Shown here one piece after another: positions 11,521 to 26,208 of a DNA stretch of 64,000 nt. Numbering within the stretch: the first letter of the stretch is position 1; every line of letters starts with the position of its first letter. The stretch spans positions 1-64,000 of the forward strand of contig JAFRUN010000047.1 of NCBI GenBank assembly GCA_017438865.1, in the 5' to 3' direction. Under the pieces are notes generated by a model that saw only the letters and a list, made by a program, of their open reading frames with translations, ran no database searches and was not told the origin of the DNA. The translations under genes were made by a program, and so were the position numbers. Source of the stretch: Clostridia bacterium (GTDB lineage Bacteria; Bacillota; Clostridia; Christensenellales; CAG-138).

Positions 11521-11963
11521 CACACGAAGAAAAGGCCTTGCAGGCGTTCACAGACGGCGCAAACTGCGCGCAGGCGGTCCTGCTTGCGTTCGGGGACGAG
11601 CTCGGCATGGACGAAAAAACCGCCTGCCGTCTTGCCTCCTCCTTCGGCGGCGGCATCGGACGGCTGCGCGAGGTCTGCGGCGCGGTGTCCGGCATGATGA
11701 TGGTGTACGGACTTCTGAAGGGATACGACGACCTTCGGGATCCCGAAGCGAAAAAAGCGCACTACGCGAACGTGCAGGCGCTTGCCGCATCGTTTCGCGA
11801 AGAGAACGGCTCGATCATCTGCCGCGAACTGCTGTCGCTGCCCGAGAACGGGCAAAGCGATCCGAACCCTACTCCGCGCGATGCGAAGTTCTATCATTCG
11901 CGTCCGTGTGCGGCTTTTGTCGCATCCGCCGCGCGGATTCTGGACGAAGCGCTGAAAAACTGA
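11517..11963 (+). CDS. C_GCAxxG_C_C family putative redox protein
   Basis: A 148-residue cysteine-rich protein matching the C_GCAxxG_C_C family: NCAQAVL near residue 20, CRLASSFGGGIGRLREVCGAVSG, and a late PCAAF cysteine. The family is of unproven function; the cysteine pattern suggests a redox or metal role, often next to electron-transfer genes. The ATG overlaps the mrp stop (ATGA), so the two are translationally coupled, which links this protein to Fe-S carrier activity by context. Confidence 0.85.
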   Translation: MTHEEKALQAFTDGANCAQAVLLAFGDELGMDEKTACRLASSFGGGIGRLREVCGAVSGMMMVYGLLKGYDDLRDPEAKKAHYANVQALAASFREENGSIICRELLSLPENGQSDPNPTPRDAKFYHSRPCAAFVASAARILDEALKN

Positions 11964-11972
11964 TTCGAAGAT

Positions 11973-12006
11973 AAAGCCCCGTCGAATGATCGACGGGGCT
12001 TTTTTA
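11973..12006 (+). terminator. Intrinsic terminator of the mrp operon
   Basis: AAGCCCCGTCG pairs with CGACGGGGCTT (11 bp, 6-nt loop), followed by six T residues. It lies between convergent operons; the minus side (TTTA) is weaker but may also end the 12-24 kb operon. Confidence 0.9.
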
Positions 12007-12013
12007 TGTTGTG

Positions 12014-12985
12014 TTACGGATTTACCACGTTCTTCGGCGTCCCGTTCAGAAACGCCTCAATATTGGAAACGGTGCAGTCCATAATCCGCTGTCTCGCCTC
12101 CTTCGGCGCCCACGAAATATGCGGCGTGATGATGCAGTTCTTTGCCTTCAAAAGCGGATTGTCCTTTTTGATCGGTTCGGTCGATACGACATCCAGCCCT
12201 GCACCCGCGATCTTGCCCGCATTCAATGCGTCCGCCACATCCTGCTCGTTGATCAGCTGACCCCTTGCGTTGTTGATCAGAATGACGCCGTCTTTCATCT
12301 TTGCGATGGTCTCACGATTGATCATTCCGAAATTCTCCTGCGTCAGGTTGCAGTGCAGACTGACCACGTCGGCACGCGCGAAGAGTTCGTCAAGCGCAAC
12401 GTATTCTCCGATCTCCTTCCCCGTCTCGTTCGGGAACAGATCGTATGCCAGGACCTTCATGCCGAGCGCTTTTGCGATCCGCCCCTCTGCCTGACCGATC
12501 CGTCCGAATCCGATGATACCCATCGTTTTGCCGTCCAACTCAATGAGCGGATACTTCCAATAGCACCAGTCGATCGAATCCGCCCATTCGCCTGCATGCA
12601 CGGAAGCATCATGCGCGCCGATATGATGACACACCTCGAGCAGCAAAGCGATCGAATACTGGCTGACCGCCGCCGTTCCGTATGCGGGCACATTCACAAC
12701 CGCGATCCTTTTTTCCTTCGCGTATGCGCAATCGACCACGTTAAATCCGGTCGCAAGCACGGCGATCAGCTTGATCCCGGGGCATCGATCTATGGTATTC
12801 TTTGTAATCGGCGTCTTATTGACAACGACGACCTCTGCGTCTCCGATGCGTTTTGCAATCAGATCCGAATCCTGATAGGTCGTTCGGTCATAAACCTCGA
12901 GCTCGCCTAACGCTTTAAGCGCGTCCCAGCAAAGATCTCCCGGGTTTTCCGTAAACCCGTCCAGCACGACGATTCTTCTGCTCAT
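12014..12985 (-). CDS. D-2-hydroxyacid dehydrogenase (glycerate/hydroxypyruvate-reductase-like)
   Basis: An NAD(P)-dependent reductase that interconverts 2-oxo acids and D-2-hydroxy acids. The 323 residues contain the nucleotide loop GIIGFGRIGQ and the catalytic triad Arg in NARGQLI, Glu in STEP, and His in TPHISW. Start MSRRIVV at 12985 follows GGAAGGA; a longer in-frame option at 13015 would swallow that site. It is the last gene of the operon, 51 nt after the cysteine-desulfidase gene, so its substrate may be the 2-oxo acid that enzyme releases (inference). Confidence 0.88.
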   Translation of the reverse strand: MSRRIVVLDGFTENPGDLCWDALKALGELEVYDRTTYQDSDLIAKRIGDAEVVVVNKTPITKNTIDRCPGIKLIAVLATGFNVVDCAYAKEKRIAVVNVPAYGTAAVSQYSIALLLEVCHHIGAHDASVHAGEWADSIDWCYWKYPLIELDGKTMGIIGFGRIGQAEGRIAKALGMKVLAYDLFPNETGKEIGEYVALDELFARADVVSLHCNLTQENFGMINRETIAKMKDGVILINNARGQLINEQDVADALNAGKIAGAGLDVVSTEPIKKDNPLLKAKNCIITPHISWAPKEARQRIMDCTVSNIEAFLNGTPKNVVNP

Positions 12986-13036
12986 ACAATCTTCCTTTCC
13001 GGGTCCGAAAAGCATTGACCCGTCTGTAGTTCCATT

Positions 13037-14314
13037 CTATTTGTTGTTGATCATCATGTCAATGATCTCTTCATTCGTCTGTTTCATACCCACTCTGCCG
13101 AGCCGTCCGATATTGGCAATCGTTTTTTCCACATCCGAGCAAACCAGTCCGTCGCCGCTTTTGAACTCCTGTCCGCATTTCCACATGCTGTTCGCCAGAA
13201 GCGCGGAATCCAGCGCGACTGCGATCTTGGCGGCGCAGGATGCTTTCGCCCCGTCGCAGACGATGCCGGAGGAAATGGCCAGCGCATTGGAGATCGTGTG
13301 AATATACTCCTCATAATCCCCGCCCTCCAGATAGGAGATCGCCGCGCTTGCGCCGACCGCCGCGCTCACCGCGCCGCAATAGGCGGACAACGTCCCGATC
13401 CCGCTTTTTTCATGAATCGCCACAAGATTCGAAAGGACAAGCGCTCTGAGCAGTTGCTCGTGCGGAACATGCAGCGCGTGCGCGTACTCCACAACCGGAA
13501 CGGAACAGGTGATCCCCTGATTGCCGCTGCCGGAGTTGATGATTACCGGCAGTTCGCATCCGTTCATGCGCGCATCCGATCCTGCTGCCGCTTTCGCTCT
13601 TGCACGAACCCCGACCGCTTCGGCGTCGCCCGTGGTCAGCAGAACCTTTCCGATGTTTGCGCCGTAATTGCCGCGCAGCCCCTCCTCGGCGATCGCGCAA
13701 TTATACGCAATCTGCCGTTCCAAAAGATCGCGCACGTCCCTCGTATCCACGGATGTCGCAAAGTCCCAGATATCCTTTAGATTGAGGATTTCGTTTTCTT
13801 CGGCATTCGCGATCTCCCCCTCGTCCCTGCAGAATCGAACTTCCCCGTTTTTCTCGATGAGAACGATATTGGTGTGATGATCGCAGATTCGGACCTTTGC
13901 GCTGTCGCTTCCTGCATACACCGTTACGGTGATATCAAAGACATGCCCTGTTTCGACATGCTTCACGACGATCGGCGTCTCTTCCGCATACGCGCGGATT
14001 TTCTTCAGGTCCGCATCATCGACCTCGGAAAGCACCTCCAGTTTTTTCTCCGCCCTGCCCGCGACGATTCCCGCCGCAGCCGCCGCTTCGATCCCCTTCA
14101 TGTGCCCGGTGTTCGGCACAATAACGCTCTTAACGTTTTTAATGATGCTGCCGCAGATCTCCAGCGATACCCGCTCCGGCAGTCTTCCGAGCGTTTCCCG
14201 CGCAGCAGCGGCGGCGTACGCAAGCGCAATGGGCTCCGTACAGCCCATCGCCGGAATCAGTTCTTCTTTCAGGATCTCGATAAATCTGTTATATTTCTCG
14301 CAGTTTCTGTCCAT
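13037..14314 (-). CDS. CyuA/UPF0597-type [4Fe-4S] L-cysteine desulfidase family
   Basis: An Fe-S lyase related to L-cysteine desulfidase (cysteine to pyruvate, ammonia and sulfide) and serine dehydratase alpha-type proteins. The 425 residues show PAMGCTEPIA with Cys25, SGSGNQG (261-267), and cysteines 313, 353 and 360. Their spacing (40 and 7 residues) equals the cluster-ligand spacing I know for the archaeal L-cysteine desulfidase. It sits 24 nt after an aminopeptidase gene in the Opp operon, suggesting that a released sulfur amino acid is its substrate. Exact substrate unknown; other beta-substituted amino acids are possible. Confidence 0.85.
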   Translation of the reverse strand: MDRNCEKYNRFIEILKEELIPAMGCTEPIALAYAAAAARETLGRLPERVSLEICGSIIKNVKSVIVPNTGHMKGIEAAAAAGIVAGRAEKKLEVLSEVDDADLKKIRAYAEETPIVVKHVETGHVFDITVTVYAGSDSAKVRICDHHTNIVLIEKNGEVRFCRDEGEIANAEENEILNLKDIWDFATSVDTRDVRDLLERQIAYNCAIAEEGLRGNYGANIGKVLLTTGDAEAVGVRARAKAAAGSDARMNGCELPVIINSGSGNQGITCSVPVVEYAHALHVPHEQLLRALVLSNLVAIHEKSGIGTLSAYCGAVSAAVGASAAISYLEGGDYEEYIHTISNALAISSGIVCDGAKASCAAKIAVALDSALLANSMWKCGQEFKSGDGLVCSDVEKTIANIGRLGRVGMKQTNEEIIDMMINNK

Positions 14315-14338
14315 GTTTCCCTCTTCTCCGATCCGTCC

Positions 14339-15454
14339 TTATCCTTCCAGATACGGTATCAGTTCTTCCGGGTTCAGCGGTTTCAACTGCTCCGGAACAA
14401 ACAGACCGTCCTTTCGGATCAGAACGTCGTCAAACCAGATTTCTCCGCCTCCGTCCTCCGCCGCATGAGACTGTACGATATCCCAATGGATCGCGGACGG
14501 ATTGATTTCGCTGTTGCCCGGCGTGAAATGGATCGTTTTGCACCGCTTCTCGTCAAAAATCGTATCCAGCGTCGTTCTGGTGAGAAACGGATTGAATCCC
14601 ATGGCAAACTCACCGATGCGTCTGGCGTTGGGGTCGGTATCCAGAATCCTGTTCATCTTTTCCGTGTCGCTGGAGGAAGCATCCACGATCAGACCGTCCT
14701 TCAGCACAAGCCGGATATCCCGGAAAACCGTGCCCTGTATTTCCGACGGGACGTTGTATGTGATATAGCCGTTTGCGCTGTCCGTGACCACCGGCATGCC
14801 CGTTTCCCCGCACGGCACGTTCCTCTGTCCGCAGCGCGGCACCGGGTTGCACAGTCCGCGAATGGAAAACCGGATATCGGTGCCCGGCGCAACGATGTGT
14901 ACCCGATCCGTTTGGGCGGCGAGTTCGGCAAGCGGTTTCACTCGCTCGCACAGTTTTCGATAATCCAGATTGCATGCTTTGAAATAATAATCCTCGAACG
15001 CCTCCGTGCTCATCCCCGCCTGCTGCGCCATTGAGGCGTTCGGATACATCAAGACGCACCACTTCGTATGCGGAATACGGATCCCGAAGTGCAGTCTGCC
15101 GTAATAGTGATTGTAGAGCGCCATCCTTTCCGGATCGATCCCCGAAAACTCGCAGCGGTTCTGCTTCTTCCGTACGACGATATAGGCATCCATCTCCTGC
15201 ATGCGCATGGACTCGTAGCGGAGCCAGCGTTCCATGTATTCGTCGGTCGCGTGCTCCATGATCAGCCGGTTCATGGCCATCGACTGGTGCGTAATATACG
15301 GAAGCCCGCCCGCGCGGTATGCAGCTTCGACAAGGGCGCATCCCAGATCGTCCGCACCCTCCCATACGTCAATCAGGACCTTTTCTCCCTTCTTGAGCGA
15401 TACTGAATACGAAATAACCTGTTCGGCAAGTTTATAAAAGCGCTGATCTGTCAT
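14339..15454 (-). CDS. M29 family metallo-aminopeptidase
   Basis: A cytosolic AmpS/PepS-type aminopeptidase that removes N-terminal residues from peptides. The 371 residues start MTDQRFYKL, with a GGGAGG ribosome site. Family landmarks are FRDIRL, GEFAMGFNP, a metal-ligand histidine in KTIHFTPGN, and the SAIHWDIV (HxD) segment near the C-terminus. Within an operon headed by a peptide-type importer it is the natural first hydrolytic step. An intercistronic hairpin lies just upstream. Confidence 0.88.
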   Translation of the reverse strand: MTDQRFYKLAEQVISYSVSLKKGEKVLIDVWEGADDLGCALVEAAYRAGGLPYITHQSMAMNRLIMEHATDEYMERWLRYESMRMQEMDAYIVVRKKQNRCEFSGIDPERMALYNHYYGRLHFGIRIPHTKWCVLMYPNASMAQQAGMSTEAFEDYYFKACNLDYRKLCERVKPLAELAAQTDRVHIVAPGTDIRFSIRGLCNPVPRCGQRNVPCGETGMPVVTDSANGYITYNVPSEIQGTVFRDIRLVLKDGLIVDASSSDTEKMNRILDTDPNARRIGEFAMGFNPFLTRTTLDTIFDEKRCKTIHFTPGNSEINPSAIHWDIVQSHAAEDGGGEIWFDDVLIRKDGLFVPEQLKPLNPEELIPYLEG

Positions 15455-15471
15455 TGAACGTTCCTCCCTTT

Positions 15472-15512
15472 GCAAGCAATGCAGAGACTGCTGCGTCTCT
15501 GCATTGCTCTTT
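15472..15512. promoter_or_regulatory. Strong intercistronic hairpin between the reductase and M29 genes
   Basis: GCAATGCAGAGAC and its near-perfect complement flank a short loop, giving a stem of about 12 bp in the 75-nt gap. On the coding (minus) strand it lacks a U-tract and stands just upstream of the aminopeptidase ribosome site. That suits a processing or stability element, or a translational block, better than termination. Confidence 0.5.
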
Positions 15513-15529
15513 TGGTCAACAATCCCGCT

Positions 15530-16537
15530 TTACTGTCTGGATTCCATCTGTTCTTTCAGAATTAGGACGCGTCTTCTGATCTCGTCGACGTCTTCCTTGG
15601 GCAGAACGACTTCGGCGGCGTGGATATCCGCCTCGATCTGACTCGGCTTGTGCGCGCCGCAGATGACGTTGATGAAATCGCCCTGGGCCAGAAGCCATGC
15701 GACGGCAAGGTCCGTAAGCGAGCAGTTGTTCTTATCGCAGATATCCTGAAGCCCATCCACAAAGTCGATGGCGAGAGGCATATTCTGGGGTTTCCACCAC
15801 AGCAGCGCATTGCGCGCATCGGCGGGATCCAGCTTGTAATCCTTGCGTACTTTCCCGGTCAGGATGCCGCGCTCCAACGGCGAATACGCATGGAACGACA
15901 TGCCGTACTCGCGGCAGAGCGGCAGCAGGTTCGTCTCGACGAACTCCCATTCCAAAATATTGTACTTCCGCTGCAGAATATCGATCTCACATCCCGCCGC
16001 AAGATATTCCTTCACGTTTTCCGGTTTGGCGTTGGACATACCGATCGCGCGGATATGTCCCTCCTGCTTGAGCCGCATCAACGCCTCCACCGTCTCTTCG
16101 ACCGGCGTGAGGAAGGGCGCTCTTGCGGGATTGTGCGGATAATACACGTCAATATAGTCGGTTCCGAGACGTTTCAGACTGCGCAGGAACTCTTCTCGAA
16201 TGACGGGCGCGGTGACATTGATATAGATGCTTTCGCCGCCCTTGTCGTTCCAGTAAGTGCCTTCCCGCTTATCCCAGATCATACCGAACTTGGTCGAAAT
16301 AACAACCTGTTCCCGGCGTCCCCTGATTGCCTTTCCGATGATTTCCTCGCTGTGTCCGAAGCCGTAAAGAGGAGCCGTATCAATCATATTTACACCGTGA
16401 TCCAGCCCGTACTGGATCGCGCGTATGGATTCCTCATCGTCTGTGCCGTTCCACCAGGCGCCTCCGCCGATAGACAGTCCGCCGAACGAAATCACCGAAA
16501 CGTCAATGCCGGAATGACCGATCGTCATGTGTCTCAT
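15530..16537 (-). CDS. Aldo/keto reductase
   Basis: A 335-residue (beta/alpha)8 NADPH-dependent oxidoreductase. The catalytic tetrad is visible: Asp and Tyr in DTAPLYG, Lys in ISTKFG, and His in YYPHNP. The start has a GGAGGAAA site. It is embedded in the Opp operon, 35 nt after the tautomerase-like gene, so it presumably reduces or oxidises a carbonyl or alcohol in the imported compound. Substrate cannot be read from sequence. Confidence 0.9.
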   Translation of the reverse strand: MRHMTIGHSGIDVSVISFGGLSIGGGAWWNGTDDEESIRAIQYGLDHGVNMIDTAPLYGFGHSEEIIGKAIRGRREQVVISTKFGMIWDKREGTYWNDKGGESIYINVTAPVIREEFLRSLKRLGTDYIDVYYPHNPARAPFLTPVEETVEALMRLKQEGHIRAIGMSNAKPENVKEYLAAGCEIDILQRKYNILEWEFVETNLLPLCREYGMSFHAYSPLERGILTGKVRKDYKLDPADARNALLWWKPQNMPLAIDFVDGLQDICDKNNCSLTDLAVAWLLAQGDFINVICGAHKPSQIEADIHAAEVVLPKEDVDEIRRRVLILKEQMESRQ

Positions 16538-16572
16538 GGGTGTTTCCTCCTTCCGATCTTTTTTCCGGATGC

Positions 16573-16932
16573 TCAGTATAAACCGTTATCCAAATGCATC
16601 ACGCCGTTCACGCCTGCGTCGCTTCCGTGATGATGTTTGATGATCACGCAGGCCCTTGCGTTCGGAACGCGATCGGAGAAGAGCTGCTTGACGACGGCGT
16701 CGAGGTCCTTGATCAATCCGCGCTTCTGATCCTCGGTCTGATAGTTCGGCGCGTAGAAGTGAAAATATATGCATCCCGATGCATTGCCGTATTGGTTCTC
16801 CGGCGGAATTTCAACAAGCATCAGGGATTTCTTTTTGAACACCTTGGAAATCGCTGCGTCGGCAAGCTCGAAAAACGGTTTCTTCTCTTCAGGTTTGATC
16901 TGAATGTTCGAATGAATGATGATGCAAGACAT
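16573..16932 (-). CDS. Small tautomerase/MIF-like protein of unknown function
   Basis: A 119-residue protein in the Opp operon. The layout resembles a MIF-type tautomerase: an N-terminal strand (IIIHSNI), helix, strand LMLVEIPPENQYG, second helix LIKDLDAVVKQLF, and strand ACVIIKHHH. The catalytic Pro that should follow the initiator Met is Ser here, so tautomerase chemistry would be lost or different. ATG 16932 has AAGGAAGG nine nt upstream; a GTG further upstream (16953) is less likely. The HHH cluster could bind metal. Family assignment is speculative. Confidence 0.6.
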   Translation of the reverse strand: MSCIIIHSNIQIKPEEKKPFFELADAAISKVFKKKSLMLVEIPPENQYGNASGCIYFHFYAPNYQTEDQKRGLIKDLDAVVKQLFSDRVPNARACVIIKHHHGSDAGVNGVMHLDNGLY

Positions 16933-16983
16933 GTTAATTACCTTCCTTTTCACATAATTTGATATATTGAGAACATTGCATCC

Positions 16984-18042
16984 TCAAAGGACGAATGTTT
17001 TACCGTCGAAATCGGGAGACTCGTGCGCCGCCTGGATGAACGCGCGCAGTTCCGCGTCCGAGGTGTTTACGGAGATCGAGCAGTCCGGTGCAAGCACGAA
17101 AGGAATATCCTTCATCTTGTTGATTGTTGCACGGGTCAGTCTCCGGATCTTTTCCGCCTGTCCCTGACCGAACGGGCGCTCATCGCACCCTCCCATCGGC
17201 GTAATCTTTCCGATCCAGTTCGGCGCGCTGTCCAATGAAGGATTGCCGGTTGCGCTCTCCGGCCAATGCAGAATGTCAATCGGATAGTCCGCAAACCATT
17301 CCGGATTGCACAGGATGCCGCAGTCGTGAACCATAATCTTCAGCGGCTTCATCGCCTGAATGAGCTCGAGATCATACGGCTTGACGAATTCCTCCCACTC
17401 CTCCTTTGTCAGGTATCCGGTTCTGGAAAGACCCGTTGCGGCATAGAAAATGCCGTAAATCCCCGTTTTCACCAGTTCCTGTGCATAAGACGCCATCGTT
17501 CTTGTGATATTTTTCAGCGCTCTGTGCACCTCGGCCGGATGCTCCTTTATCAGCGTAACCATCAGGTCGGAACGGGTTGCCGTGCGATAGCGGCCGATGG
17601 AGAATACCGCGCACATTTTCTGAAAAATGGCTGCGGGGCAGAACACGCCGTTGAAGATCGGAGTCCCGTCCTTCACTCCGTCCACAAGCAGCCGGCATGC
17701 CTCTACCTGCTCCGCCAGCGGCCAAGCCGAAGCGGGCATTTCCACAATCCTTTCAAGATCCTCTGCACAGGTGATCGGCGCTTTTGTGATCGGTGCAACC
17801 ACGCCGCCCTCATAGTCCTCGTACTGGAATTCGCCGCCCCATACTTCCTCGTAGTAGGTAGCACGGTTCTGCGCCTTCAGATAATCCCAGTCATACTGTT
17901 CCTGGAATTTCAGCATGGCATCGGCAAAATCCGCGGCGCCGCTGTGCTCCCTGTCCGTAAAATGCCGCCAGGCGGATACGGGGGGGCGGTCTGCGGGTTC
18001 ACCGTTTAAAACCGCTTCCAGGCGCTCCAATTTCGTCCACAT
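16984..18042 (-). CDS. UroD/MtaA-superfamily zinc-dependent methyltransferase
   Basis: A TIM-barrel protein of 352 residues in the uroporphyrinogen-decarboxylase fold family. It keeps the zinc-ligand pattern of methylcobamide:thiol methyltransferases: His239-x-Cys241 in MVHDCG and Cys321 in APDCSI, an 80-residue gap close to that in MtbA-type enzymes. The family activates a thiol for methyl transfer to or from a corrinoid. No corrinoid protein is encoded in this window. It follows oppF by 26 nt and is clearly in the operon. A heme-pathway role is unlikely: there are no hem genes nearby. Substrate is unknown. Confidence 0.8.
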   Translation of the reverse strand: MWTKLERLEAVLNGEPADRPPVSAWRHFTDREHSGAADFADAMLKFQEQYDWDYLKAQNRATYYEEVWGGEFQYEDYEGGVVAPITKAPITCAEDLERIVEMPASAWPLAEQVEACRLLVDGVKDGTPIFNGVFCPAAIFQKMCAVFSIGRYRTATRSDLMVTLIKEHPAEVHRALKNITRTMASYAQELVKTGIYGIFYAATGLSRTGYLTKEEWEEFVKPYDLELIQAMKPLKIMVHDCGILCNPEWFADYPIDILHWPESATGNPSLDSAPNWIGKITPMGGCDERPFGQGQAEKIRRLTRATINKMKDIPFVLAPDCSISVNTSDAELRAFIQAAHESPDFDGKTFVL

Positions 18043-18068
18043 TTGTTCTCCTCCTTCAATGCTTGTAC

Positions 18069-19052
18069 TTAAGACTGTTCGTAAAGGAAACATGCAACCT
18101 CATGCCGCCCGTCAACCGGTTTCAGCTTCGGCTTCTCATTTTTGCACCGTTCCGTGCAATGCGGGCAGCGCGATGCAAGCGGGCAGCAGTTAACCTTCCC
18201 GATGTGGCTCACGAGATCCCCCCTGAGCTCCAGCCGCTCCTTCTTCTCGAACGGACTGGAGGGCGGAATGGAGGAAAGCAGCGCCTGCGTATACGGGTGC
18301 AGCGGCCGCGTATAGATGCCGCTCGCCTCGCAGAACTCCACGATATGTCCGAGATACATAACGGCGATGTAGTCGCTGATGTATCGGATAACGCTGAGGT
18401 CGTGGCTGATGAACAGATACGTCAGGTTAAACTCCTGCTGCAGCTTGATCAGCAGGTTCAGCACCTGTGCCTGAATCGAAACGTCCAGTGCGGAAACCGG
18501 TTCGTCGCAGATCAGAACCTCCGGATTGAGCGTAAGCGCACGGGCGATATTGATCCTCTGACGCTGACCGCCCGAAAACTCATGCGGATAGCGCTGCAGA
18601 TGGTATCTGTCCAATCCCACCGATTGCAGAAGCTCGATTGCTCTGTCGACTCTCGACTGTCCTTCGGGCGTAAAGTTATGGATCGTAAACGGCTCCATAA
18701 CAAGCTGTGAAATGCGCATTTTCGGATCAAGCGAGGAATAGGGATCCTGGAAGATCATCTGTATTTTTCGACTGATCTCCTTTTTTTCTTTCCCCGTGCA
18801 CTTGCTGATATCCTTATTGTTGAAATAGATGCTCCCGCTCGTCGGTTTGTGCAGCGATACGAGACAGCGGCTCAGCGTGGATTTCCCGCAGCCGGATTCA
18901 CCGATGACGCCGACCGTTTCTCCCTTATATACCTTGAGAGAGACATCATCCAACGCGTACAGCTGCTTCCGCTGAAACGAATATCTGTTTCCGATCGGGA
19001 AACACTTTGTGAGATTCTTCACCTCAAGAAGCGGCGATTGATTATCCGTCAT
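18069..19052 (-). CDS. Peptide-type ABC transporter ATPase (OppF-like)
   Basis: A 327-residue cytoplasmic ATPase. Walker A is GESGCGKST, the signature is FSGGQRQR, Walker B is VLICDEP, and the C-terminal Opp/Dpp region holds the cysteine cluster CCPLASRCPHCTERC, a likely Fe-S site as in OppD/DppD proteins. Start MTDNQSP at 19052 overlaps the upstream oppD-like gene by 11 nt. An extension to 19211 was rejected because it lies inside that gene and reads as low-complexity basic sequence. Confidence 0.92.
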   Translation of the reverse strand: MTDNQSPLLEVKNLTKCFPIGNRYSFQRKQLYALDDVSLKVYKGETVGVIGESGCGKSTLSRCLVSLHKPTSGSIYFNNKDISKCTGKEKKEISRKIQMIFQDPYSSLDPKMRISQLVMEPFTIHNFTPEGQSRVDRAIELLQSVGLDRYHLQRYPHEFSGGQRQRINIARALTLNPEVLICDEPVSALDVSIQAQVLNLLIKLQQEFNLTYLFISHDLSVIRYISDYIAVMYLGHIVEFCEASGIYTRPLHPYTQALLSSIPPSSPFEKKERLELRGDLVSHIGKVNCCPLASRCPHCTERCKNEKPKLKPVDGRHEVACFLYEQS

Positions 19053-20058
19053 TGCGATTTTCTTCTCCCTTGACAAGGTTTGTCGTCTTCGACTGGAAAT
19101 GACAGGCGACAAAATGCCCGTCGCTGACCTCGACCATTTCCGGCTCCGTGTCTTCGCAGCACTGCTTTGCATATCTGCAGCGAGCTCTGAAATTACAGCC
19201 CTTTCCGACAAGCCGCAGATCAGGCGGAATACCGTCGATGGTCGACAGCGGTTCCTTCGGCGTATCGTTGAGCGACGGCATGGAATCCATCAAGCCCCAT
19301 GTGTATGGATGCTTCGGATTGGAATACAGTTCTCTTACGTTCGCTTTTTCAACCACCTTCCCCGCATACATGACCATGACATTGTCGCAGATTTGCCAAA
19401 CGACGCCCAGATTATGGGTGATAATCAGAATGGACGTGCCGTATTTTTCCTGAAGATCCTTCAGGAGCTTCAGGATCTGCGCCTGCATGGTGACATCCAG
19501 TGCGGTTGTGGGCTCGTCGGCGATGATCAGTTTCGGTCGCGCAAGGATCGCCATAGCGATCGCAACGCGCTGACACATGCCGCCCGACAGTTCAAACGGG
19601 TAGGAATCAAACCGCTTATGCGGATCGGGGATACCGACGTCCGCCAGCGCCTGAATGCATTCCTTTGCCGCTGTCTTCCGGTCAATATTTCTGTGCGCCT
19701 GCAGCATTTCGATCATTTGATCGCTGACCTTGAAAACCGGGTCGAGCGTAGTCATCGGATCCTGAAAGATCATTGCCACGTCGCTGCCGCGCAGTTTTCT
19801 CAATTCTTCACGGGAAAGCTTTGACACATCCGTCCCGTTGAAGGTTACCGTGCCGTCCACGATCTTGCCGCTCTTGCTTGCCAGAAGCCGGATGATCGAT
19901 GCGGACATTACGCTTTTCCCGCAGCCGGATTCTCCCACGACGCCCAGCGTTTCACCCTGCGTCATGTCGAATGAAACGCCGTCAACCGCCTTGGCGACGC
20001 CGCTTTTGGTGAAGAAATAGGTCCTGAGGCCGCTTATCTCCAACAATTTTTCTTCCAC
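19042..20058 (-). CDS. Peptide-type ABC transporter ATPase (OppD-like)
   Basis: A 338-residue ATPase partner of the preceding one. Walker A is GESGCGKSV, the signature is LSGGMCQRV (Met-Cys in place of the usual Gln), Walker B is LIIADEPTTALD, and the C-terminal cysteines follow the pattern CNFRARCRYAKQCC. It energises import through the OppB/OppC-like permeases. It starts 11 nt after oppC and overlaps oppF, indicating one transcript. Confidence 0.92.
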   Translation of the reverse strand: MEEKLLEISGLRTYFFTKSGVAKAVDGVSFDMTQGETLGVVGESGCGKSVMSASIIRLLASKSGKIVDGTVTFNGTDVSKLSREELRKLRGSDVAMIFQDPMTTLDPVFKVSDQMIEMLQAHRNIDRKTAAKECIQALADVGIPDPHKRFDSYPFELSGGMCQRVAIAMAILARPKLIIADEPTTALDVTMQAQILKLLKDLQEKYGTSILIITHNLGVVWQICDNVMVMYAGKVVEKANVRELYSNPKHPYTWGLMDSMPSLNDTPKEPLSTIDGIPPDLRLVGKGCNFRARCRYAKQCCEDTEPEMVEVSDGHFVACHFQSKTTNLVKGEENRNDG

Positions 20059-20069
20059 CGCCGACCTCC

Positions 20070-20975
20070 TTACTGTTTCATCTTCGGATCCAGCGCATCC
20101 CTTATTCCGTCGCCCGTCAGGTTGAATCCCAATACGGCAAGGAAGATGAAAATGCCCGGAATAATCGCAAGATGCGGCTTGTTATACAGGAATGCGTTGC
20201 CAGCCCTCAGGATATTTCCCCAGGACGGCGTCGGTGCGATAATGCCCAGTCCGAGAAAGCTCAGACCCGCTTCCGAAAGAATCGCGCTTGCGATGTTCAG
20301 CGTGAAGTAAACGATGATGGGCGAAATTGCATTGGGCAGGATATGCACCACGGCAAGGCGGAAATGAGATGCGCCGAGAACACGCTCCGCGTTGCAGAAT
20401 TCCTCGTTCCGCAGGACCGTAAACTGTCCGCGCACGACCCTGGCAAATTTCGGAACCGCGCTGATTCCCAAAGCAAGAATCACGTTCAGCGCACCGTTGC
20501 CCAGCACCGTTACCAGGACGATGGAAAGAAGTATGGAGGGAAATGCGAACAGTCCGTCGACAATTCGCATCAGCACCGAATCCACAACGCCGCCGCAGTA
20601 CCCTGCCAGAATGCCGATCACCATACCGATCAAACATCCGACGACGCTTGATCCGGCCGCAATCAGAATCGACATGCGGGAACCGTAAATGATCCGGGAG
20701 AGCAGGTCCCTTCCGAACTCGTCGGTGCCGAACAGGTGTCCGGGAGAAAACGGCGTCAGGAGCTTGTTCTTCAGATCCAGCGCCTCCGGATCATACGGAG
20801 ACAGTACGGACGAGAACAGCGCCATAATCACCAGTATTCCGACGATCACAAGTCCTACGACAGCCGATTTGTTTCTGACAAACTTTTTCCAGAAGCTGTT
20901 TACTTTCTGCTCTTTCTTTAACAGCTCCGCGCTCGTCATTACCGCCTCGGAGGAGATTTTTTCTTTACGTTTCAT
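20070..20975 (-). CDS. Peptide-type ABC transporter permease (OppC-like)
   Basis: An inner-membrane permease of 301 residues with about six membrane segments and the EAA loop FCNAERVLGASHFRLAVVHI that docks the ATPases. GTDEFGRDLLSRIIYG after the first membrane segment is typical of OppC/DppC. Two ATG codons six nt apart are possible; 20975 is chosen because GGAGGAGG then lies 7 nt upstream, whereas the first ATG almost touches it. Confidence 0.92.
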   Translation of the reverse strand: MKRKEKISSEAVMTSAELLKKEQKVNSFWKKFVRNKSAVVGLVIVGILVIMALFSSVLSPYDPEALDLKNKLLTPFSPGHLFGTDEFGRDLLSRIIYGSRMSILIAAGSSVVGCLIGMVIGILAGYCGGVVDSVLMRIVDGLFAFPSILLSIVLVTVLGNGALNVILALGISAVPKFARVVRGQFTVLRNEEFCNAERVLGASHFRLAVVHILPNAISPIIVYFTLNIASAILSEAGLSFLGLGIIAPTPSWGNILRAGNAFLYNKPHLAIIPGIFIFLAVLGFNLTGDGIRDALDPKMKQ

Positions 20976-20991
20976 ACGCATTCCTCCTCCG

Positions 20992-21933
20992 TTAAATTTT
21001 GATCTTCGGATTGATGAGCATATATATGATGTCCATTATCAAGCTCACCGCAACATTGACCACCGCCAGCGTAAGGATCGCACCCTGAATCAATGCATAA
21101 TCCCGGGTATTGATTGCCGTGGAGATCATGGTCCCCATTCCGGGCCAGGAAAAGATGTTTTCCGTGAGAATCGCGCCGGAAAAGCAAATGCCCAGCTGAA
21201 CGCCCAAAACAGAAATGATCGGCGGAAGTGCATTTTTGAAGGCATGCTTCCAGATCACCTTCCGTTCTTTCAGCCCCCTTGCCCGAAGTGCGCGGATATA
21301 GTCGTTATTGACGGTATCCAGCATGCTCGAACGGGTTGTGCGCGCGAATGTCGCCATCGGCGCAAGCGAAAGGCACAGGCACGGCAGCAGCATATGCGAC
21401 AATATATCCCATAAACCGTTTTGAATGGAACCCATCCCCATCGTCGGCAGCCAGCCCAACTTGACGCTGAAAAGGAAAATGCTCATAATGCCGATCCAGA
21501 ATACCGGCAAGGAAGCGCCCAACAACGAGAACACGGTGCAGAAATGATCGATCCAACTGTTCTGCCGCAATGCGGAAACCGTGCCGAGCAGTGTTCCCAG
21601 AATCAGCGCGACAATAAGGCCTGTGAACGTGATCATGAGCGTTTTGGGGATACGGCTCAGAATCAACTGAAAAACGGGCTCATTGTAGTTCAGTGAAGTT
21701 CCGAAATCACCTTTAAAAATGTCGGAGACGTAGATCAAAAACTGCTCCGGGATACTCTTGTCGAGTCCCATCTTCGCTTCCAACTCCGCAATCAGGCGGG
21801 GATCGGCCTCAGGACCCGCGAGTACTGAGGCCGGATTCCCCGGGATGATTCTTGTGATTACAAAGGTGACGGATAGAACAATCAATACGGTGGGGATAAG
21901 TTGCAGAAGCCTTTTCCAAATTAAACGTATCAT
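20992..21933 (-). CDS. Peptide-type ABC transporter permease (OppB-like)
   Basis: A 313-residue permease. The N-terminus MIRLIWKRLLQLIPTVL is the first membrane segment, and IPGNPA and GLDKSIPEQF are OppB/DppB family landmarks. The EAA loop YIRALRARGLKERKVIWKHA contacts the ATPases. It lies 35 nt after the substrate-binding protein gene. Ligand class (di/oligopeptide, nickel, or other) cannot be fixed from the permease. Confidence 0.92.
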   Translation of the reverse strand: MIRLIWKRLLQLIPTVLIVLSVTFVITRIIPGNPASVLAGPEADPRLIAELEAKMGLDKSIPEQFLIYVSDIFKGDFGTSLNYNEPVFQLILSRIPKTLMITFTGLIVALILGTLLGTVSALRQNSWIDHFCTVFSLLGASLPVFWIGIMSIFLFSVKLGWLPTMGMGSIQNGLWDILSHMLLPCLCLSLAPMATFARTTRSSMLDTVNNDYIRALRARGLKERKVIWKHAFKNALPPIISVLGVQLGICFSGAILTENIFSWPGMGTMISTAINTRDYALIQGAILTLAVVNVAVSLIMDIIYMLINPKIKI

Positions 21934-21968
21934 AATTCTTATCCGTTCTGTTCAGATTCAGAGGAAAA

Positions 21969-23618
21969 TCAGTTCTCTTTCCACGCGTTGTAGTTGAAGC
22001 CGTTGCAGATCAGGAACCAGTTGTCGAAGTCTTCCATGTGGACTCCCTTGCGGACGCCCCAGAAGGTAAACTGATCGGCAAACCAGATGCCAGGATAATC
22101 TGCCATAACCAGATCCAGCAGTTCGCCGTAGATCGCCGCTCTTTCGCTGTGATCCGTCGTCGCCAACGCCTTGTAGATCAACTCGTCCGCCTTCTCGTTG
22201 ATGTACGGACCGGGGTTATAGGACGCATGCGCCTTTGCGGAGTCGAACGCATAACCGAGAGAGAAGTGCGGGTCGGAAGTCGATGCGGTCAGGCCGCCCA
22301 TGTAGAGCTCGCCGTTGCCGGTATGAACGAGATCGTTGTAGGTCGCCGTTTCCGTACCGTCAAGGATTACGTTGACATTCAGGTACTTCTTCCACTGCTG
22401 CTGCAGAATAACGCCCACGCGGTCTCTCTCCACGGAGCTCGCATAGCTCAGCGTAATATCAAACCCGTCCGGATACGCAGATTCGGCAAGAACCGCCTTT
22501 GCCTTTTCCGGATCGAAATCCGGCACCTTGCCTTCCAGTTCTTCGCTGTACAGCCAGGAATTGCTGCAGAGAGGCAGCTTCGTAACTGCTGCGGTACCCG
22601 CTGCAAATGCGCCGTCCACCAGTTCCTGACGATCCGTTGCAAGAATCAGCGCTTCACGAACCTTAGGATCCGTCAGCGGTCCGTTCTCAAGACTGAATGC
22701 AATGCTGTTCATCTGAACCTTGTTCAGGGAGATGAGATCCAGATTCTCGCTGTTGACTACACGCTCCAGCGAGTCGGTCGGGAGCGACAGTGCAATGTCA
22801 ATCTCTCCGGTCAGAAGCGCGTTGACACGCTGATCGCCGTCCTGAATGACCTTGAAGATAACCTTGTCCAGATGCGGACGCTCGCCCCAGTAGTTCTCGT
22901 TGCGAACCAGAACGGTCTGTTGGTCGATCTCATGACTCTCCAGCATGAACGGTCCGGTCGAGCAGAAATGCATACCGAAATCGTCGCCCCAGCCCTCTAC
23001 TTCTTCCTTCGGAACGATCATGTAGTACGCAAGGGTAAGCTCATAAAGCAGCGTTGCCGTCGGTCTGTTGAGATAGAAGGTGACCTCGTTCTCTCCGGTT
23101 GCCTTGACTTCATCTACAAAGCTCAGAGTGTTGTTGACATGCTTCTTGTTCCGGTTGATCGAGTAAGCAACGTCTTCCGCCGTCATCAGACGCCCGTCCT
23201 GATACGTGCCCTTCTGGAAGTGCACGTCGTCTCTCAGCTGGAATACCCACTGGAGTCCGTCCTTGCTTACCTCCCACTTGGTTGCAAGACTGGGTAGATA
23301 CTCGCCGCTGCCGCTTGCGTCATGCGCAACAAGCGGATCGCCCATCTGCGTGGTAAGGACAAACGCATTGTAGCCGGAGATCTTCAGCGGATCGAGCGAC
23401 GTAGGCGCTTTATCCATCGAAAGCGTGAGTGTTCCTCCGTCTACCGCTTCATTCTTGATTTCCGCAGCGGAGCCCACAACTTCCTGCTCATTGACCGCGC
23501 CTGCCGCGGGGGGCTGTGTGGGATCTGCATCAACCTGAGCGGGTGTGCTCGGCGTACAGCCGGCCATCAGACTCAGCATCATTGCCAAAGCAAGTACCAC
23601 AGACAACATCTTTTTCAT
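21969..23618 (-). CDS. SBP family 5 substrate-binding lipoprotein
   Basis: A 549-residue extracytoplasmic receptor, first gene of the transporter operon. The signal peptide ends in the lipobox SLMAGC (Cys21), then an Ala/Pro/Asp-rich spacer. The SBP_bac_5 body carries GGTLTLSMDKAPTSLDP and the family motif DGLQWVFQLRDDVHFQ-like segment at about 125-140. Family members bind peptides, opines, nickel complexes or glutathione; the ligand is unknown here. A GGAAAGGA site precedes the ATG, and TATAAT lies at 23648-23653 (minus). Confidence 0.93.
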   Translation of the reverse strand: MKKMLSVVLALAMMLSLMAGCTPSTPAQVDADPTQPPAAGAVNEQEVVGSAAEIKNEAVDGGTLTLSMDKAPTSLDPLKISGYNAFVLTTQMGDPLVAHDASGSGEYLPSLATKWEVSKDGLQWVFQLRDDVHFQKGTYQDGRLMTAEDVAYSINRNKKHVNNTLSFVDEVKATGENEVTFYLNRPTATLLYELTLAYYMIVPKEEVEGWGDDFGMHFCSTGPFMLESHEIDQQTVLVRNENYWGERPHLDKVIFKVIQDGDQRVNALLTGEIDIALSLPTDSLERVVNSENLDLISLNKVQMNSIAFSLENGPLTDPKVREALILATDRQELVDGAFAAGTAAVTKLPLCSNSWLYSEELEGKVPDFDPEKAKAVLAESAYPDGFDITLSYASSVERDRVGVILQQQWKKYLNVNVILDGTETATYNDLVHTGNGELYMGGLTASTSDPHFSLGYAFDSAKAHASYNPGPYINEKADELIYKALATTDHSERAAIYGELLDLVMADYPGIWFADQFTFWGVRKGVHMEDFDNWFLICNGFNYNAWKEN

Positions 23619-23909
23619 TGCAAGTTACCATCCTTTCCTTTTTTGCATTATAGTTTTTTCCGAGTTTATCAAACGCTTTTCCGTATATATATTCATATAT
23701 TCTTCATTTAGTTTAAGCATAACAGATGGTGATCAATCAGGGAAACATGTTTTTTCCTTTATTTCTCACAGTTAAAATACTGTTATAATGTAATTGCTTT
23801 TGCATAATCTATAGGATATAATGTATTATTAGACAGGGAAATCTGTTTAATTATTCCATCGGCTCCCCTGCCGGCGATTTCAAAAACGACCTTATCCCGG
23901 AGGATTGAA
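23619..23909. promoter_or_regulatory. Divergent control region of the transporter operon and lysR
   Basis: This AT-rich 291-nt gap carries TATAAT for the minus-strand operon (23648-23653) with no good -35, which fits an activator-dependent promoter. For lysR it carries TTGCTT (23794-23799), 17 nt, TATAAT (23817-23822); a second TATAAT sits at 23784-23789. LysR proteins usually bind such divergent gaps and control both sides. Confidence 0.6.
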
Positions 23910-24875
23910 ATGAATTTCCTGAATTTAGAATACTTTCTTATTGCCGCAGAGGAACTGAATTTTACAAGAGCTTCCAAACGGCTGTTCATTTCCCAACAAT
24001 CTTTGAGTTCCCATATCAGCAAGCTGGAAGAGGACTTTCAGGTTCAGCTGTTTGAGCGCAGCTCGCCGCTCCGGCTTACAACCGAAGGAAAATACCTCGT
24101 TACGCGTGCAAAAGAAATCTGCAGGATGCGTGACGACACCGTTCGCGAGATACGCGACATCGGCAACCGTGAAGTCGGCGATATTATCATCGGCAGTCCG
24201 CGCTCCTGGGGACGTCTTCTTCTTCCGTATATCCTTCCCGAATACACCCGCCGATATCCGCTCATCCGGCTGCATTTGGAAGAGGGAACGCGTACCGAAA
24301 TCAACGCCAAGCTGATCGACGGTACTTTGGATCTCGGATTCGGTTTCCTTCCGGACGAAAGCAGCGGCATTGAAGCCGAGGTACTCTGTACAGAGAGGAT
24401 TCTGCTGCTTGTTCCTTATCAGGTGATTCACGAAATCTATCAGGAATCTTCAAAAAACATCATTTCCTCTCTCATGCAAAAGCCGGACGTCTCCGCCATC
24501 CGGGACTGCCCCTTTTTGTTAAGTGACGAAACCTCCCGTACCGGAACGGTAGCGAGGGACATCTTCCGCGATCTCGGGATTACGCCGCGCGTGGTCCTGG
24601 AATCCCGAAATCTGGAAACGCTTTTGGAACTCTGTCTGCGCGGGATGGGTTGCATGTTCTGTCCCGAAACCTTCGTTGCGGAGGCAATCCTCGGCCGGAA
24701 CATCGTCTCCCCGACCGAATTGGGCGTCTATGAGCTGCCGTATCCGAACTGCAATCGCGCAATCGCCATTTCCACGCCCAGCACCAAATATAAGACGAAG
24801 GCCGTTCGCGATTTTATCCGACTTGCAAAAGAATGCGTAAACGACGGTCCGTTCAATATGGGAAAGCTCATTTGA
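23910..24875 (+). CDS. LysR family transcriptional regulator
   Basis: A 321-residue DNA-binding regulator. The N-terminal winged HTH (about 1-60) reads YFLIAAEELNFTRASKRLFISQ and SSHISKLEED, typical of LysR; residues about 90-300 form the co-inducer-binding fold (GDIIIGSPRSWGRLLLPYI). It is divergent from the transporter operon and 27 nt upstream of the amidohydrolase, so it is the likely sensor of the imported compound. The ATG follows a CCGGAGG site. Confidence 0.93.
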   Translation: MNFLNLEYFLIAAEELNFTRASKRLFISQQSLSSHISKLEEDFQVQLFERSSPLRLTTEGKYLVTRAKEICRMRDDTVREIRDIGNREVGDIIIGSPRSWGRLLLPYILPEYTRRYPLIRLHLEEGTRTEINAKLIDGTLDLGFGFLPDESSGIEAEVLCTERILLLVPYQVIHEIYQESSKNIISSLMQKPDVSAIRDCPFLLSDETSRTGTVARDIFRDLGITPRVVLESRNLETLLELCLRGMGCMFCPETFVAEAILGRNIVSPTELGVYELPYPNCNRAIAISTPSTKYKTKAVRDFIRLAKECVNDGPFNMGKLI

Positions 24876-24902
24876 CGATCTGTATCGGGAAAGGACGCAA
24901 TC

Positions 24903-26087
24903 ATGGAAGACTATCTGATCAAGCTCTGCGAAGAAGCCGCCTCGAAAGCGGTCGGTTGGCGACGCTGCATGCACGAACATCCCGAGCTCTCTTTCAAGGA
25001 AGTCGGAACGACCGCGTTTATTGAGCGTATTCTCCGCGGCTTTGACGGCATCACCGTCGAGCGTCCGCTGAAAACGGGTCTTGTCGCCGTGCTGAAAGGC
25101 GATTTGTCCGGAAAAACCGTCGCCATGCGGGCAGACATCGATGCGCTGCCCATTTCGGAGGATGAATCTCTCCCCATTCGGTCAAAAGTCCCCGGTGTAA
25201 TGCACGCCTGCGGACACGATGCACATGCGGCGACCCTGCTCGGGACCGCGGAGGTCCTTTCAAAAATCCGTCACACACTGCACGGAACCGTCAAGTTTAT
25301 TTTCCAGCCGGCAGAGGAATGCCCGCCCGGCGGTGCAAAGGATATGGTCGCGTGCGGCGTGCTGAACGACGTGGACATGATATTCGGCATGCATTATCAC
25401 GTGTACGAGGACCCCGGCACGTTTCTGGTCAAGCCCGGCCCGTTGTATGCGTCCACATATGATATGCGCATTGAGCTTTCCGGAAAGGGCGGTCACGCCG
25501 CCTTCCCGCACAGCGGCACAGACTGTATCCTTTTGGCTTCGCAGATCGTCGTCGGGATCAACGGCATCATCCCCCGTTTTATCGACAACGCCAAACGATC
25601 GGTCCTGACCGTCACCGGAATTACCAGCCCGATGGCGTACAACAGCTTCCCGGATTCCGTGACGCTCATCGGGACCATGCGCTCGCTGGATAAGGACGCC
25701 GAAGCGCTCATCATCCGGAAGGTCACAGAGCTTTGTCAGTCGTATGCCCGGCTTTTCGAAGCAAGCTGCAGCGTATCCTTTACCAAGGGATACGACCTCG
25801 TTTCCAGCGATCCGGTCATTGCCGCCGCGGTTCGAAAGACTCTGACGGAAGAATTCGGTGACGCGCATGTCAAGGAACCGGTTCCTCTCATGGGCGGAGA
25901 GGATTTCTCAAGCTATCTCGCCCGTGTCCCCGGATGCTTTTTCCGCTCCGGAACCCGCACCGTCAAGAGCGACGGCTCCGTGAGCCCGCCCCACTGCAGC
26001 AGCTATGAGTTCAACGACGACGCCATCCTTCCCTCTGTAAAAGCACAGGTGTCCGTTTTGCTGAACGTTCCGGGGATGATATCATAA
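24903..26087 (+). CDS. M20D family amidohydrolase
   Basis: A dizinc amidohydrolase related to hippurate, IAA-amino-acid and N-acetyldiaminopimelate hydrolases. The 394 residues carry MHEHPELSF (His/Glu near 23), MHACGHDAHA (metal Cys and His near 100), the PAEE catalytic glutamate, a lid domain, and MGGEDFS near the C-terminus. It hydrolyses an N-acyl or amide bond in the cytoplasm. Following lysR on the same strand, it probably releases an amino acid from the compound taken up by the divergent transporter. AspAT-type or acetyldiaminopimelate roles cannot be excluded. Confidence 0.9.
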   Translation: MEDYLIKLCEEAASKAVGWRRCMHEHPELSFKEVGTTAFIERILRGFDGITVERPLKTGLVAVLKGDLSGKTVAMRADIDALPISEDESLPIRSKVPGVMHACGHDAHAATLLGTAEVLSKIRHTLHGTVKFIFQPAEECPPGGAKDMVACGVLNDVDMIFGMHYHVYEDPGTFLVKPGPLYASTYDMRIELSGKGGHAAFPHSGTDCILLASQIVVGINGIIPRFIDNAKRSVLTVTGITSPMAYNSFPDSVTLIGTMRSLDKDAEALIIRKVTELCQSYARLFEASCSVSFTKGYDLVSSDPVIAAAVRKTLTEEFGDAHVKEPVPLMGGEDFSSYLARVPGCFFRSGTRTVKSDGSVSPPHCSSYEFNDDAILPSVKAQVSVLLNVPGMIS

Positions 26088-26102
26088 CCAGACCTACGGG
26101 AA

Positions 26103-26150
26103 GCGGCTGTCGGCATGGTTTTCCTCCTTACCGGCAGCCGCATTGTTTTC
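26103..26150 (+). terminator. Probable terminator after the amidohydrolase
   Basis: GCGGCTGTCGG (26103-26113) pairs with CCGGCAGCCGC (26131-26141) with one mismatch, followed by ATTGTTTTCC. The long loop and broken U-tract make it a moderate call. Confidence 0.55.
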
Positions 26151-26180
26151 CTCCCCGGCCATTCTTTAACGTTATATCAT

Positions 26181-26208
26181 TTGACTTTCCGATTGTTCGT
26201 GTTATAAT
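26181..26208 (+). promoter_or_regulatory. Promoter of the aminotransferase gene
   Basis: TTGACT (26181-26186) is 16 nt from TATAAT (26203-26208); an AAAGGAG site then precedes the ATG at 26239. Confidence 0.7.

What the first reader, a model, noticed from the sequence alone, without database searches (positions are those of the whole stretch)
12014..26087. Peptide-type importer co-encoded with a zinc-thiol methyltransferase, CyuA-type desulfidase and hydrolases: candidate new catabolic pathway
Seen: one minus-strand run (SBP, OppB, OppC, OppD, OppF, UroD/MtaA-type methyltransferase, tautomerase-like protein, aldo/keto reductase, M29 aminopeptidase, CyuA-like Fe-S lyase, D-2-hydroxyacid dehydrogenase) with short gaps, divergent from LysR plus an M20D amidohydrolase. 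Known: these families cleave peptide or N-acyl bonds, demethylate or methylate thiols, release sulfide and 2-oxo acid from cysteine-like amino acids, and reduce 2-oxo acids. Inference: import of a peptide- or amide-linked, S- or O-methylated amino acid, then hydrolysis, demethylation, elimination and reduction. I know of no described pathway with this gene set.
Basis: partly seen in the sequence, partly recalled or inferred. Interest (0 to 1): 0.72.

Follow-up and report, generated by a model that had tools for sequence, protein, structure and literature searches.

The report
Island that likely unblocks bound cysteine
A bacterium carries a 14-kilobase gene island, missing at the same spot in the twelve relatives compared, that encodes a peptide-type importer, hydrolases, an enzyme of the UroD family with a conserved metal-site motif and a cysteine-desulfidase-type enzyme, which together would likely free cysteine from imported compounds whose sulfur is blocked and then break it down for food.

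Summary
The gene run is real and its ends match an island: window ~11,964-26,171 is missing at the same site in 12 of 12 same-genus genomes compared. It holds SBP-OppBCDF, a UroD-fold protein, an orphan 119-aa protein, an aldo/keto reductase, an M29-like protein, a CyuA-type desulfidase and a D-2-hydroxyacid dehydrogenase, with divergent LysR and M20D genes. CyuA keeps five catalytic residues in 13 of 13 cluster copies. The UroD protein belongs to a rare clade whose His-x-Cys...Cys triad is complete in 101 of 108 homologues. In 25 clade loci CyuA is nearby in 12, Opp permeases in 12, M20 hydrolases in 13, against 0 of 11 for other UroD-family loci. Nine of 18 host genomes have no methyl-corrinoid domain, so corrinoid-type demethylation is unlikely. 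The 'tautomerase' label is not supported. Best reading: import of sulfur-blocked cysteine conjugates, hydrolysis, zinc-assisted release of the thiol, then CyuA. Dicarboxylate-type symporters beside UroD in other lineages and a basic catalytic face suggest an anionic blocking group. Substrate and UroD reaction are inferred, not shown; Paenibacillaceae loci lack any recognised C-S lyase.

The parts
11964..26171 (.). accessory island (approximate borders)
   Evidence: BLASTN of 12 relatives: homology ends at 11955-11963 and resumes at 26164-26203 in 12 of 12; GC 0.51-0.56 in 4-kb bins against 0.598 and 0.590 in the flanking bins
11973..12002 (+). terminator-like hairpin at the left end of the island, 13 bp stem
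   Evidence: scored on the + strand
12014..13015 (-). ddh, D-2-hydroxyacid dehydrogenase
   Evidence: PF02826 203.2 bits; no NCBIfam equivalog cut-off reached
13037..14314 (-). cyuA, L-cysteine desulfidase type
   Evidence: PF03313 203.4 bits; L-cysteine desulfidase 9he0; Cys25, Glu27, Cys313, Cys353, Cys360 kept
14339..15454 (-). M29-like metallopeptidase homologue
   Evidence: PF02073 121.9 bits; aminopeptidase T 40.8 bits
15475..15508 (.). 14-bp perfect hairpin between akr and m29; no T run after it on the minus strand
15530..16537 (-). akr, aldo/keto reductase (YdjG-like, below cut-off)
   Evidence: PF00248 219.7 bits; NF049922 339.1 of 550 bits
   Evidence: 5 clusters in the protein search, one of them the window's own; model pLDDT 66.7; no Pfam match
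16984..18042 (-). UroD-fold protein, 352 aa, His239-x-Cys241...Cys321
18069..19052 (-). oppF, ATPase
   Evidence: PF00005 and PF08352
19042..20058 (-). oppD, ATPase
   Evidence: PF00005 and PF08352
20070..20981 (-). oppC, permease
   Evidence: PF00528 and PF12911; best NCBIfam GsiD 294.6 of 484 bits
20992..21933 (-). oppB, permease
   Evidence: PF00528 and PF19300
21969..23618 (-). SBP, family 5 binding protein with lipoprotein-like N-terminus
   Evidence: PF00496 274.2 bits; no NCBIfam cut-off reached
23910..24875 (+). LysR-type regulator
   Evidence: PF03466 and PF00126
24903..26087 (+). M20D amidohydrolase
   Evidence: TIGR01891 321 bits, cut-off 153.75; best solved relative YxeP 1ysj, 243.4 bits

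Best explanation
A 14.2-kb island, absent at the same site in the 12 relatives compared, encodes a peptide-type importer, hydrolases, a UroD-fold protein with a conserved His/Cys/Cys triad and a CyuA-type desulfidase, which together would likely free cysteine from imported, sulfur-blocked cysteine conjugates and then split it to pyruvate, ammonia and sulfide. Proposed order: LysR senses the conjugate; SBP-OppBCDF imports it as a peptide or N-acyl conjugate; the M29-like and M20D hydrolases cut the peptide or N-acyl bond; the UroD-fold enzyme holds the thioether sulfur on zinc and releases the thiol without a corrinoid partner; CyuA cleaves the free cysteine; the two reductases deal with pyruvate and perhaps the released fragment. 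Shown: gene content, island borders, CyuA catalytic residues, the conserved triad, the conserved neighbourhood. Inferred: substrate, zinc occupancy, the UroD reaction and the order of steps. The blocking group is more likely anionic than methyl (inference).
For: Block present or absent as one piece. CyuA residues kept 13 of 13. Triad 101 of 108, on a UroD/MtaA fold. Of 25 clade loci CyuA in 12, Opp permeases in 12, both in 7, M20 in 13, M20 or a prolidase-like amidohydrolase in 15, against 0 of 11 controls for each of these families (the joint counts are mine from its lists). In Sporosarcina, which has no CyuA match, a methionine gamma-lyase-like gene (below cut-off) stands directly before UroD. 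ATC_hydrolase-family genes, named for making cysteine, are near UroD in L020 and L034. M20D is closest to YxeP, the N-acetylcysteine deacetylase ScmP of S-alkylcysteine salvage (PMC12757645). Corrinoid domain absent in 9 of 18 hosts. DASS symporter in 7 of 25 loci, closest solved relative VcINDY. Invariant H27, K56, R207, D287, E288 beside the triad at strand ends.
Against: No substrate or activity is known. CyuA is common: 31 of 61 relatives have it, and the window's genome has a second copy. Thirteen of 25 clade loci have no CyuA nearby, though some are cut by contig ends. Paenibacillaceae loci L033, L036, L037 have Opp and hydrolases but no recognised C-S lyase, and a hydantoinase-type gene instead. 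AKR, M29 and the orphan protein occur only in the window type (L017-L019), so their role cannot be read from other clusters. A hairpin between akr and m29 could split the transcript; the matching gap in L019 has a hairpin followed by Ts. Basic residues and an anion-type symporter are indirect hints only.
Confidence: 0.4

Rival explanations
1. Ordinary fermentation of cysteine-containing peptides: import, hydrolysis, CyuA. The UroD-fold protein handles a side compound and is not on the main path.
For: Opp, peptidases and CyuA suffice for this. SBP and Opp reach no specific NCBIfam cut-off. CyuA is common in the order.
Against: UroD is the member shared by all clade loci by construction, but it sits with CyuA and a symporter without peptidases in L038, L041 and G914, so there it cannot be a side gene of peptide use.
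Confidence: 0.25
2. S-demethylation: the UroD protein moves a methyl group from a methyl thioether to a corrinoid or folate carrier, giving cysteine for CyuA.
For: Fold and triad as in MtaA; the best NCBIfam matches are methylcobamide:CoM methyltransferase models, though far below cut-off (54.3 of 244 bits).
Against: No corrinoid-binding domain in the island; PF02607 absent in 9 of 18 hosts, six of them isolates, and 5 more have only one hit of MetH size. R207, D287 and E288, invariant in the clade alignment, align with Ser, Val and Ser in MtaA (my reading). A folate carrier was not tested.
Confidence: 0.12
3. Opening of cysteine-carbonyl adducts (thiazolidines or hemithioacetals): the UroD protein frees cysteine and an aldehyde or oxo acid, which the reductases or an aldehyde dehydrogenase then remove.
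For: AKR of the methylglyoxal reductase type and D-2-hydroxyacid dehydrogenase in the island; a succinate-semialdehyde dehydrogenase-type gene after UroD in Sporosarcina (669.1 bits, cut-off 646.35); prolidase-like amidohydrolase in 9 of 25 loci.
Against: Many such adducts fall apart on their own (general knowledge); AKR is limited to the window type.
Confidence: 0.08
4. Thiol alkylation: the UroD protein methylates or alkylates sulfide or cysteine to limit toxicity from the desulfidase.
For: Zinc-thiolate enzymes of the MetE/MtaA type normally alkylate thiols (general knowledge; fold match).
Against: No alkyl donor gene recognised in the island; a symporter rather than a donor system beside UroD in Peptoniphilus and Treponema.
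Confidence: 0.05

Closest known systems
scm/yxe S-(2-succino)cysteine clusters of Bacillus subtilis, and the 2SL lyase variant (PMC9706529, PMC12757645; passages and one section read)
   Same: ABC importer, M20 N-acetylcysteine deacetylase and a step that releases a cysteine thiol from its adduct
   Different: Those use an acetyltransferase and YxeK or 2SL and keep the cysteine; here a UroD-fold protein is the candidate release enzyme and CyuA then destroys the cysteine
CyuA/CyuP cysteine use in E. coli (PMC9040844, abstract in search listing only) and M. maripaludis CyuA (PMC12647591, outline and passages)
   Same: Fe-S desulfidase of the same family with the same catalytic residues
   Different: No UroD-fold partner or peptide hydrolases named in what I saw; importer of another kind in E. 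coli
MtaA/MtbA/CmuA methylcobamide methyltransferases
   Same: Fold and His-x-Cys...Cys triad
   Different: No corrinoid partner, extra invariant charged residues, NCBIfam scores far below cut-off
Cobalamin-independent methionine synthase MetE
   Different: Single short domain, no MetE match in Pfam or NCBIfam
Skin-odour precursor breakdown of Cys-Gly conjugates in corynebacteria and staphylococci (recalled, no call)
   Same: Peptide import, dipeptidase, then C-S cleavage
   Different: There a PLP lyase acts on the conjugate itself and frees the other thiol; here cysteine is thought to be freed first

Membership tests
CyuA L-cysteine desulfidase | Three conserved cluster cysteines (MmCyuA Cys287, Cys329, Cys336) | tested here: met
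   Window Cys313, Cys353, Cys360; 13 of 13 cluster copies (PMC12647591 passages)
CyuA L-cysteine desulfidase | Catalytic Cys23 and Glu25, not conserved in serine dehydratases | tested here: met
   Window Cys25 and Glu27; 13 of 13 (PMC12647591 passages)
CyuA L-cysteine desulfidase | Sulfide release from L-cysteine | not testable with these tools
   Needs an assay
MtaA/CmuA methylcobamide methyltransferases | UroD fold with His-x-Cys...Cys zinc triad | tested here: met
   zinc itself not shown
MtaA/CmuA methylcobamide methyltransferases | Reaches the curated model cut-off | tested here: not met
   TIGR01463 36.7 of 235.4 bits; NF004889 54.3 of 244 bits
MtaA/CmuA methylcobamide methyltransferases | Corrinoid carrier protein in the host | tested here: not met
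   PF02607 absent in 9 of 18 clade hosts; 5 more with a single MetH-size hit. Carriers without this domain would be missed; G000 and G004 are only about 79% complete
M20D N-acyl amino acid hydrolases (YxeP/ScmP) | M20 amidohydrolase family model above cut-off | tested here: met
   TIGR01891 321 bits, cut-off 153.75; YxeP best solved relative
M20D N-acyl amino acid hydrolases (YxeP/ScmP) | N-acetylcysteine as substrate | not testable with these tools
   Needs an assay
scm/yxe S-alkylcysteine salvage cluster | Acetyltransferase plus YxeK monooxygenase or 2SL lyase | tested here: not met
   None of the 13 island proteins matches such families in Pfam or NCBIfam
Opp/Dpp-type ABC importer | Family 5 binding protein, two permeases, two ATPases | tested here: met
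Opp/Dpp-type ABC importer | Peptide as ligand | tested here: inconclusive
   DppA, GsiB, NikA and others score alike, all below cut-off
M29 aminopeptidase | Family model above cut-off | tested here: met
   PF02073 121.9 bits, cut-off 27
M29 aminopeptidase | Complete set of metal ligands | not tested
   Not mapped residue by residue
Tautomerase superfamily (orphan protein) | Catalytic N-terminal proline | tested here: not met
   Met-Ser-Cys in all 6 aligned sequences
Tautomerase superfamily (orphan protein) | Tautomerase fold | tested here: inconclusive
   Model of low confidence; the listed matches are ferredoxin-like

The most novel reading that the evidence does not exclude
The UroD-fold clade is a corrinoid-free zinc lyase that splits anionic cysteine thioethers such as S-(2-succino)cysteine into cysteine and fumarate. 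With CyuA it would be the anaerobic way in which gut-type and oral Bacillota and Treponema recycle succinated, otherwise dead-end cysteine, and the first carbon-sulfur lyase of the UroD/MetE superfamily that I know of.
Probability: 0.15. Interest if true: 0.78.

Novelty: new variant of a known kind. Interest (0 to 1): 0.55.

Why it matters
If true, anaerobes have an oxygen-free way to reopen conjugated or damaged cysteine, the large UroD superfamily gains a reaction outside decarboxylation and methyl transfer, and one more source of sulfide in gut communities is named that starts from conjugates rather than free cysteine. The clade has members in named isolates (for example Clostridium sporosphaeroides DSM 1294 and Sporosarcina limicola DSM 13886), so the idea can be tested directly.

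Tried and rejected
Rejected: the tautomerase label (no tautomerase among the rows shown, which does not exclude the fold). Rejected as a requirement: a corrinoid carrier. Kept only as rivals: thiol alkylation, carbonyl adducts.

Led nowhere: literature searches for UroD-family genes with cysteine desulfidase or demethylation, S-methylcysteine demethylation, S-alkylcysteine lyase or mercapturates in gut bacteria. One search ('uroporphyrinogen decarboxylase' with 'cysteine desulfidase') found 0 papers in the held library, which lacks most subscription papers; this is the only ground for saying that I found no description.

More clade members were sought in 396, 394, 130 and 299 genomes: 1, 1, 3 and 2 hits, all but one (G914) in genomes already known. 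The clade is rare and the sample of loci stays small.

Weak arguments not relied on: host counts of CyuA (20 of 26 hosts, two of these only partial matches, against 31 of 61 relatives; the two sets are not matched by lineage); the binomial values, which assume independent loci and a guessed background rate; consensus promoters and terminators (15 and 17 found, 9.4 and 14.7 expected).
Full report
Observation. The window is contig C41 of a 1.92-Mb assembly in 67 contigs, 79.5% complete. The minus-strand genes run SBP, oppB, oppC, oppD, oppF, uroD, orphan, akr, m29, cyuA, ddh with gaps of -11 to 75 bp (two junctions corrected by 3 bp). LysR and M20D diverge from a 291-bp stretch.

Island. In this genus an Mrp-type ATPase gene and an aspartate aminotransferase gene, which flank the block here, are usually close together. 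Each has a match in 21 of 23 genomes. Leaving out G000 and G004, 19 genomes have both: in 16 on one contig, 0.02 to 5.2 kb apart, in 3 on different contigs (my count). I fetched 12 of those 16. Homology to the window stops at 11955-11963 and resumes at 26164-26203 in 12 of 12. Between these points the relatives have from about 40 bases to about 4.6 kb of other DNA, which I did not annotate. The clade UroD gene itself is not found in the same-genus genomes other than G000 and G004; the only matches there are distant ones in G001 and G016. G004 carries the whole block. GC of the block is lower than in both flanks, and similar clusters occur in other Clostridiales and Oscillospiraceae MAGs. I infer gain by transfer; loss in the others is not excluded.

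Neighbourhood. One genome scan gave 31 loci. I used the 25 with at least 38% identity and dropped six of 28-34% (L040, L042-L045, L047). With matches to a locus's own proteins left out, CyuA is in 12 of 25, M20 hydrolases in 13, Opp permeases in 12, a prolidase-like amidohydrolase in 9, a DASS symporter in 7, a TRAP permease in 3 and the LysR in 7. CyuA and Opp permeases occur together in 7, and M20 or the amidohydrolase in 15 (my counts from the lists). Some loci are close relatives (for example L023 and L025), and some are cut by contig ends. The control was 11 stretches of 7-20 kb around UroD-family genes outside the clade, from the window's order: 0 of 11 for each of these families, with Opp-type ATPases in 2 of 11. 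The query families were drawn from the clade loci themselves, and the control genomes cover other lineages than most clade loci; both favour the contrast.

What stands beside UroD. Peptoniphilus, its relative G914 and Anaerococcus have UroD, symporter and CyuA. Two Treponema have UroD and symporter, with CyuA elsewhere in the genome. Cuneatibacter has Opp, CyuA, an M24 peptidase, UroD and PepT. Sporosarcina has Opp, M20D, a methionine gamma-lyase-like gene (482.2 of 549.7 bits), UroD and a succinate-semialdehyde dehydrogenase-type gene, and no CyuA match in the genome. Clostridiales 1_7_47_FAA has UroD, a GntR regulator, the symporter, an ATC_hydrolase-family gene, and CyuA between two further UroD-like genes, then a D-2-hydroxyacid dehydrogenase. 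The symporter's best solved relative is VcINDY (102.9 bits). Against the reading: the three Paenibacillaceae loci have Opp, a dipeptidase-type M20, the amidohydrolase and a hydantoinase-type gene, but no recognised C-S lyase.

Corrinoid test. PF02607 was searched in 18 hosts (18 of the 26 later used). None was found in 9: G000, G004, G066 and six named isolates (Clostridium sporosphaeroides, Sporosarcina limicola, Treponema socranskii, Treponema sp. Marseille-Q4130, Peptoniphilus duerdenii, Anaerococcus provencensis). Five more have a single hit in a frame of 792-1175 aa, the size of MetH (my reading). G062, G063, G067 and G072 have others. The search rang in 9 of 14 control genomes, Methanosarcina among them. 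A carrier without this domain, or a folate carrier, is not excluded.

CyuA. The five residues named for M. maripaludis CyuA (PMC12647591, outline and passages seen) map through the 9he0 alignment to Cys25, Glu27, Cys313, Cys353 and Cys360, kept in 13 of 13 cluster copies, the window and its near-identical L017 included. CyuA-type matches occur in 20 of 26 hosts, partial in G072 and G441, and are missing in six. G000 has a second copy on another contig, so the island copy is not its only one.

Other genes. M20D is above the amidohydrolase cut-off and closest to YxeP among solved structures. The orphan protein has 5 clusters in the protein search, one being the window's own, and occurs beside UroD in L017-L019. 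AKR and ddh reach no equivalog cut-off, so their substrates are open.

Transcription. A perfect 14-bp hairpin lies between akr and m29. On the minus strand no T run follows it in the window, but the matching gap of L019 has a hairpin followed by five Ts (by eye). Partial termination there is possible. Promoter and terminator scans are close to their shuffled expectation.

Comparison. B. subtilis clusters with ScmP, YhaA and YtnL recover cysteine from S-alkylcysteines by acetylation, breakdown and deacetylation (PMC12757645, section 4 and passages), and 2SL replaces the monooxygenase in some (PMC9706529, abstract and passages). The island shares importer and deacetylase, lacks acetyltransferase, YxeK and 2SL, and adds UroD and CyuA. 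It therefore works like, but is not a member of, that kind of cluster.

Verdict. A real, discrete and conserved gene unit. The end step is well supported by residues, entry by gene content, and the middle step is a hypothesis that named isolates can test. The novelty lies in the UroD clade, not in the importer or CyuA.

Noticed in passing
window 34344-34433 (-): SAM riboswitch aptamer (52.2 bits); the gene it controls was not examined.
   Followed up: no
window 10696-11963 (+): Short Mrp-type ATPase (274 aa; MrpORP model 324.4 of 450 bits) followed by a C_GCAxxG_C_C redox protein, ending at the island's left border.
   Followed up: partly
window 29838-31112 (-): 424-aa ORF without a Pfam or NCBIfam match at E 0.001, opposite a 559-aa frame; either may be the gene.
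   Followed up: no
L034 15765-19220: Two further UroD-like genes flank CyuA in Clostridiales 1_7_47_FAA; the Cys after the first His is replaced (His-x-His) in both, so the metal site would differ.
   Followed up: partly
L020 12503-13057 and L034 15145-15642: Related genes near UroD; the L034 one matches L-2-amino-thiazoline-4-carboxylic acid hydrolase PF14196.
   Followed up: partly
L068 6917-8200 (-), G000 contig C58: Second CyuA-type gene of the window's genome, with no UroD-clade, Opp, M20 or symporter relative matched in the 15-kb stretch.
   Followed up: partly
L093, G016 contig C58: The empty site of G016 holds about 4.6 kb of other DNA between the same flanks, so the spot may accept insertions repeatedly.
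   Followed up: no
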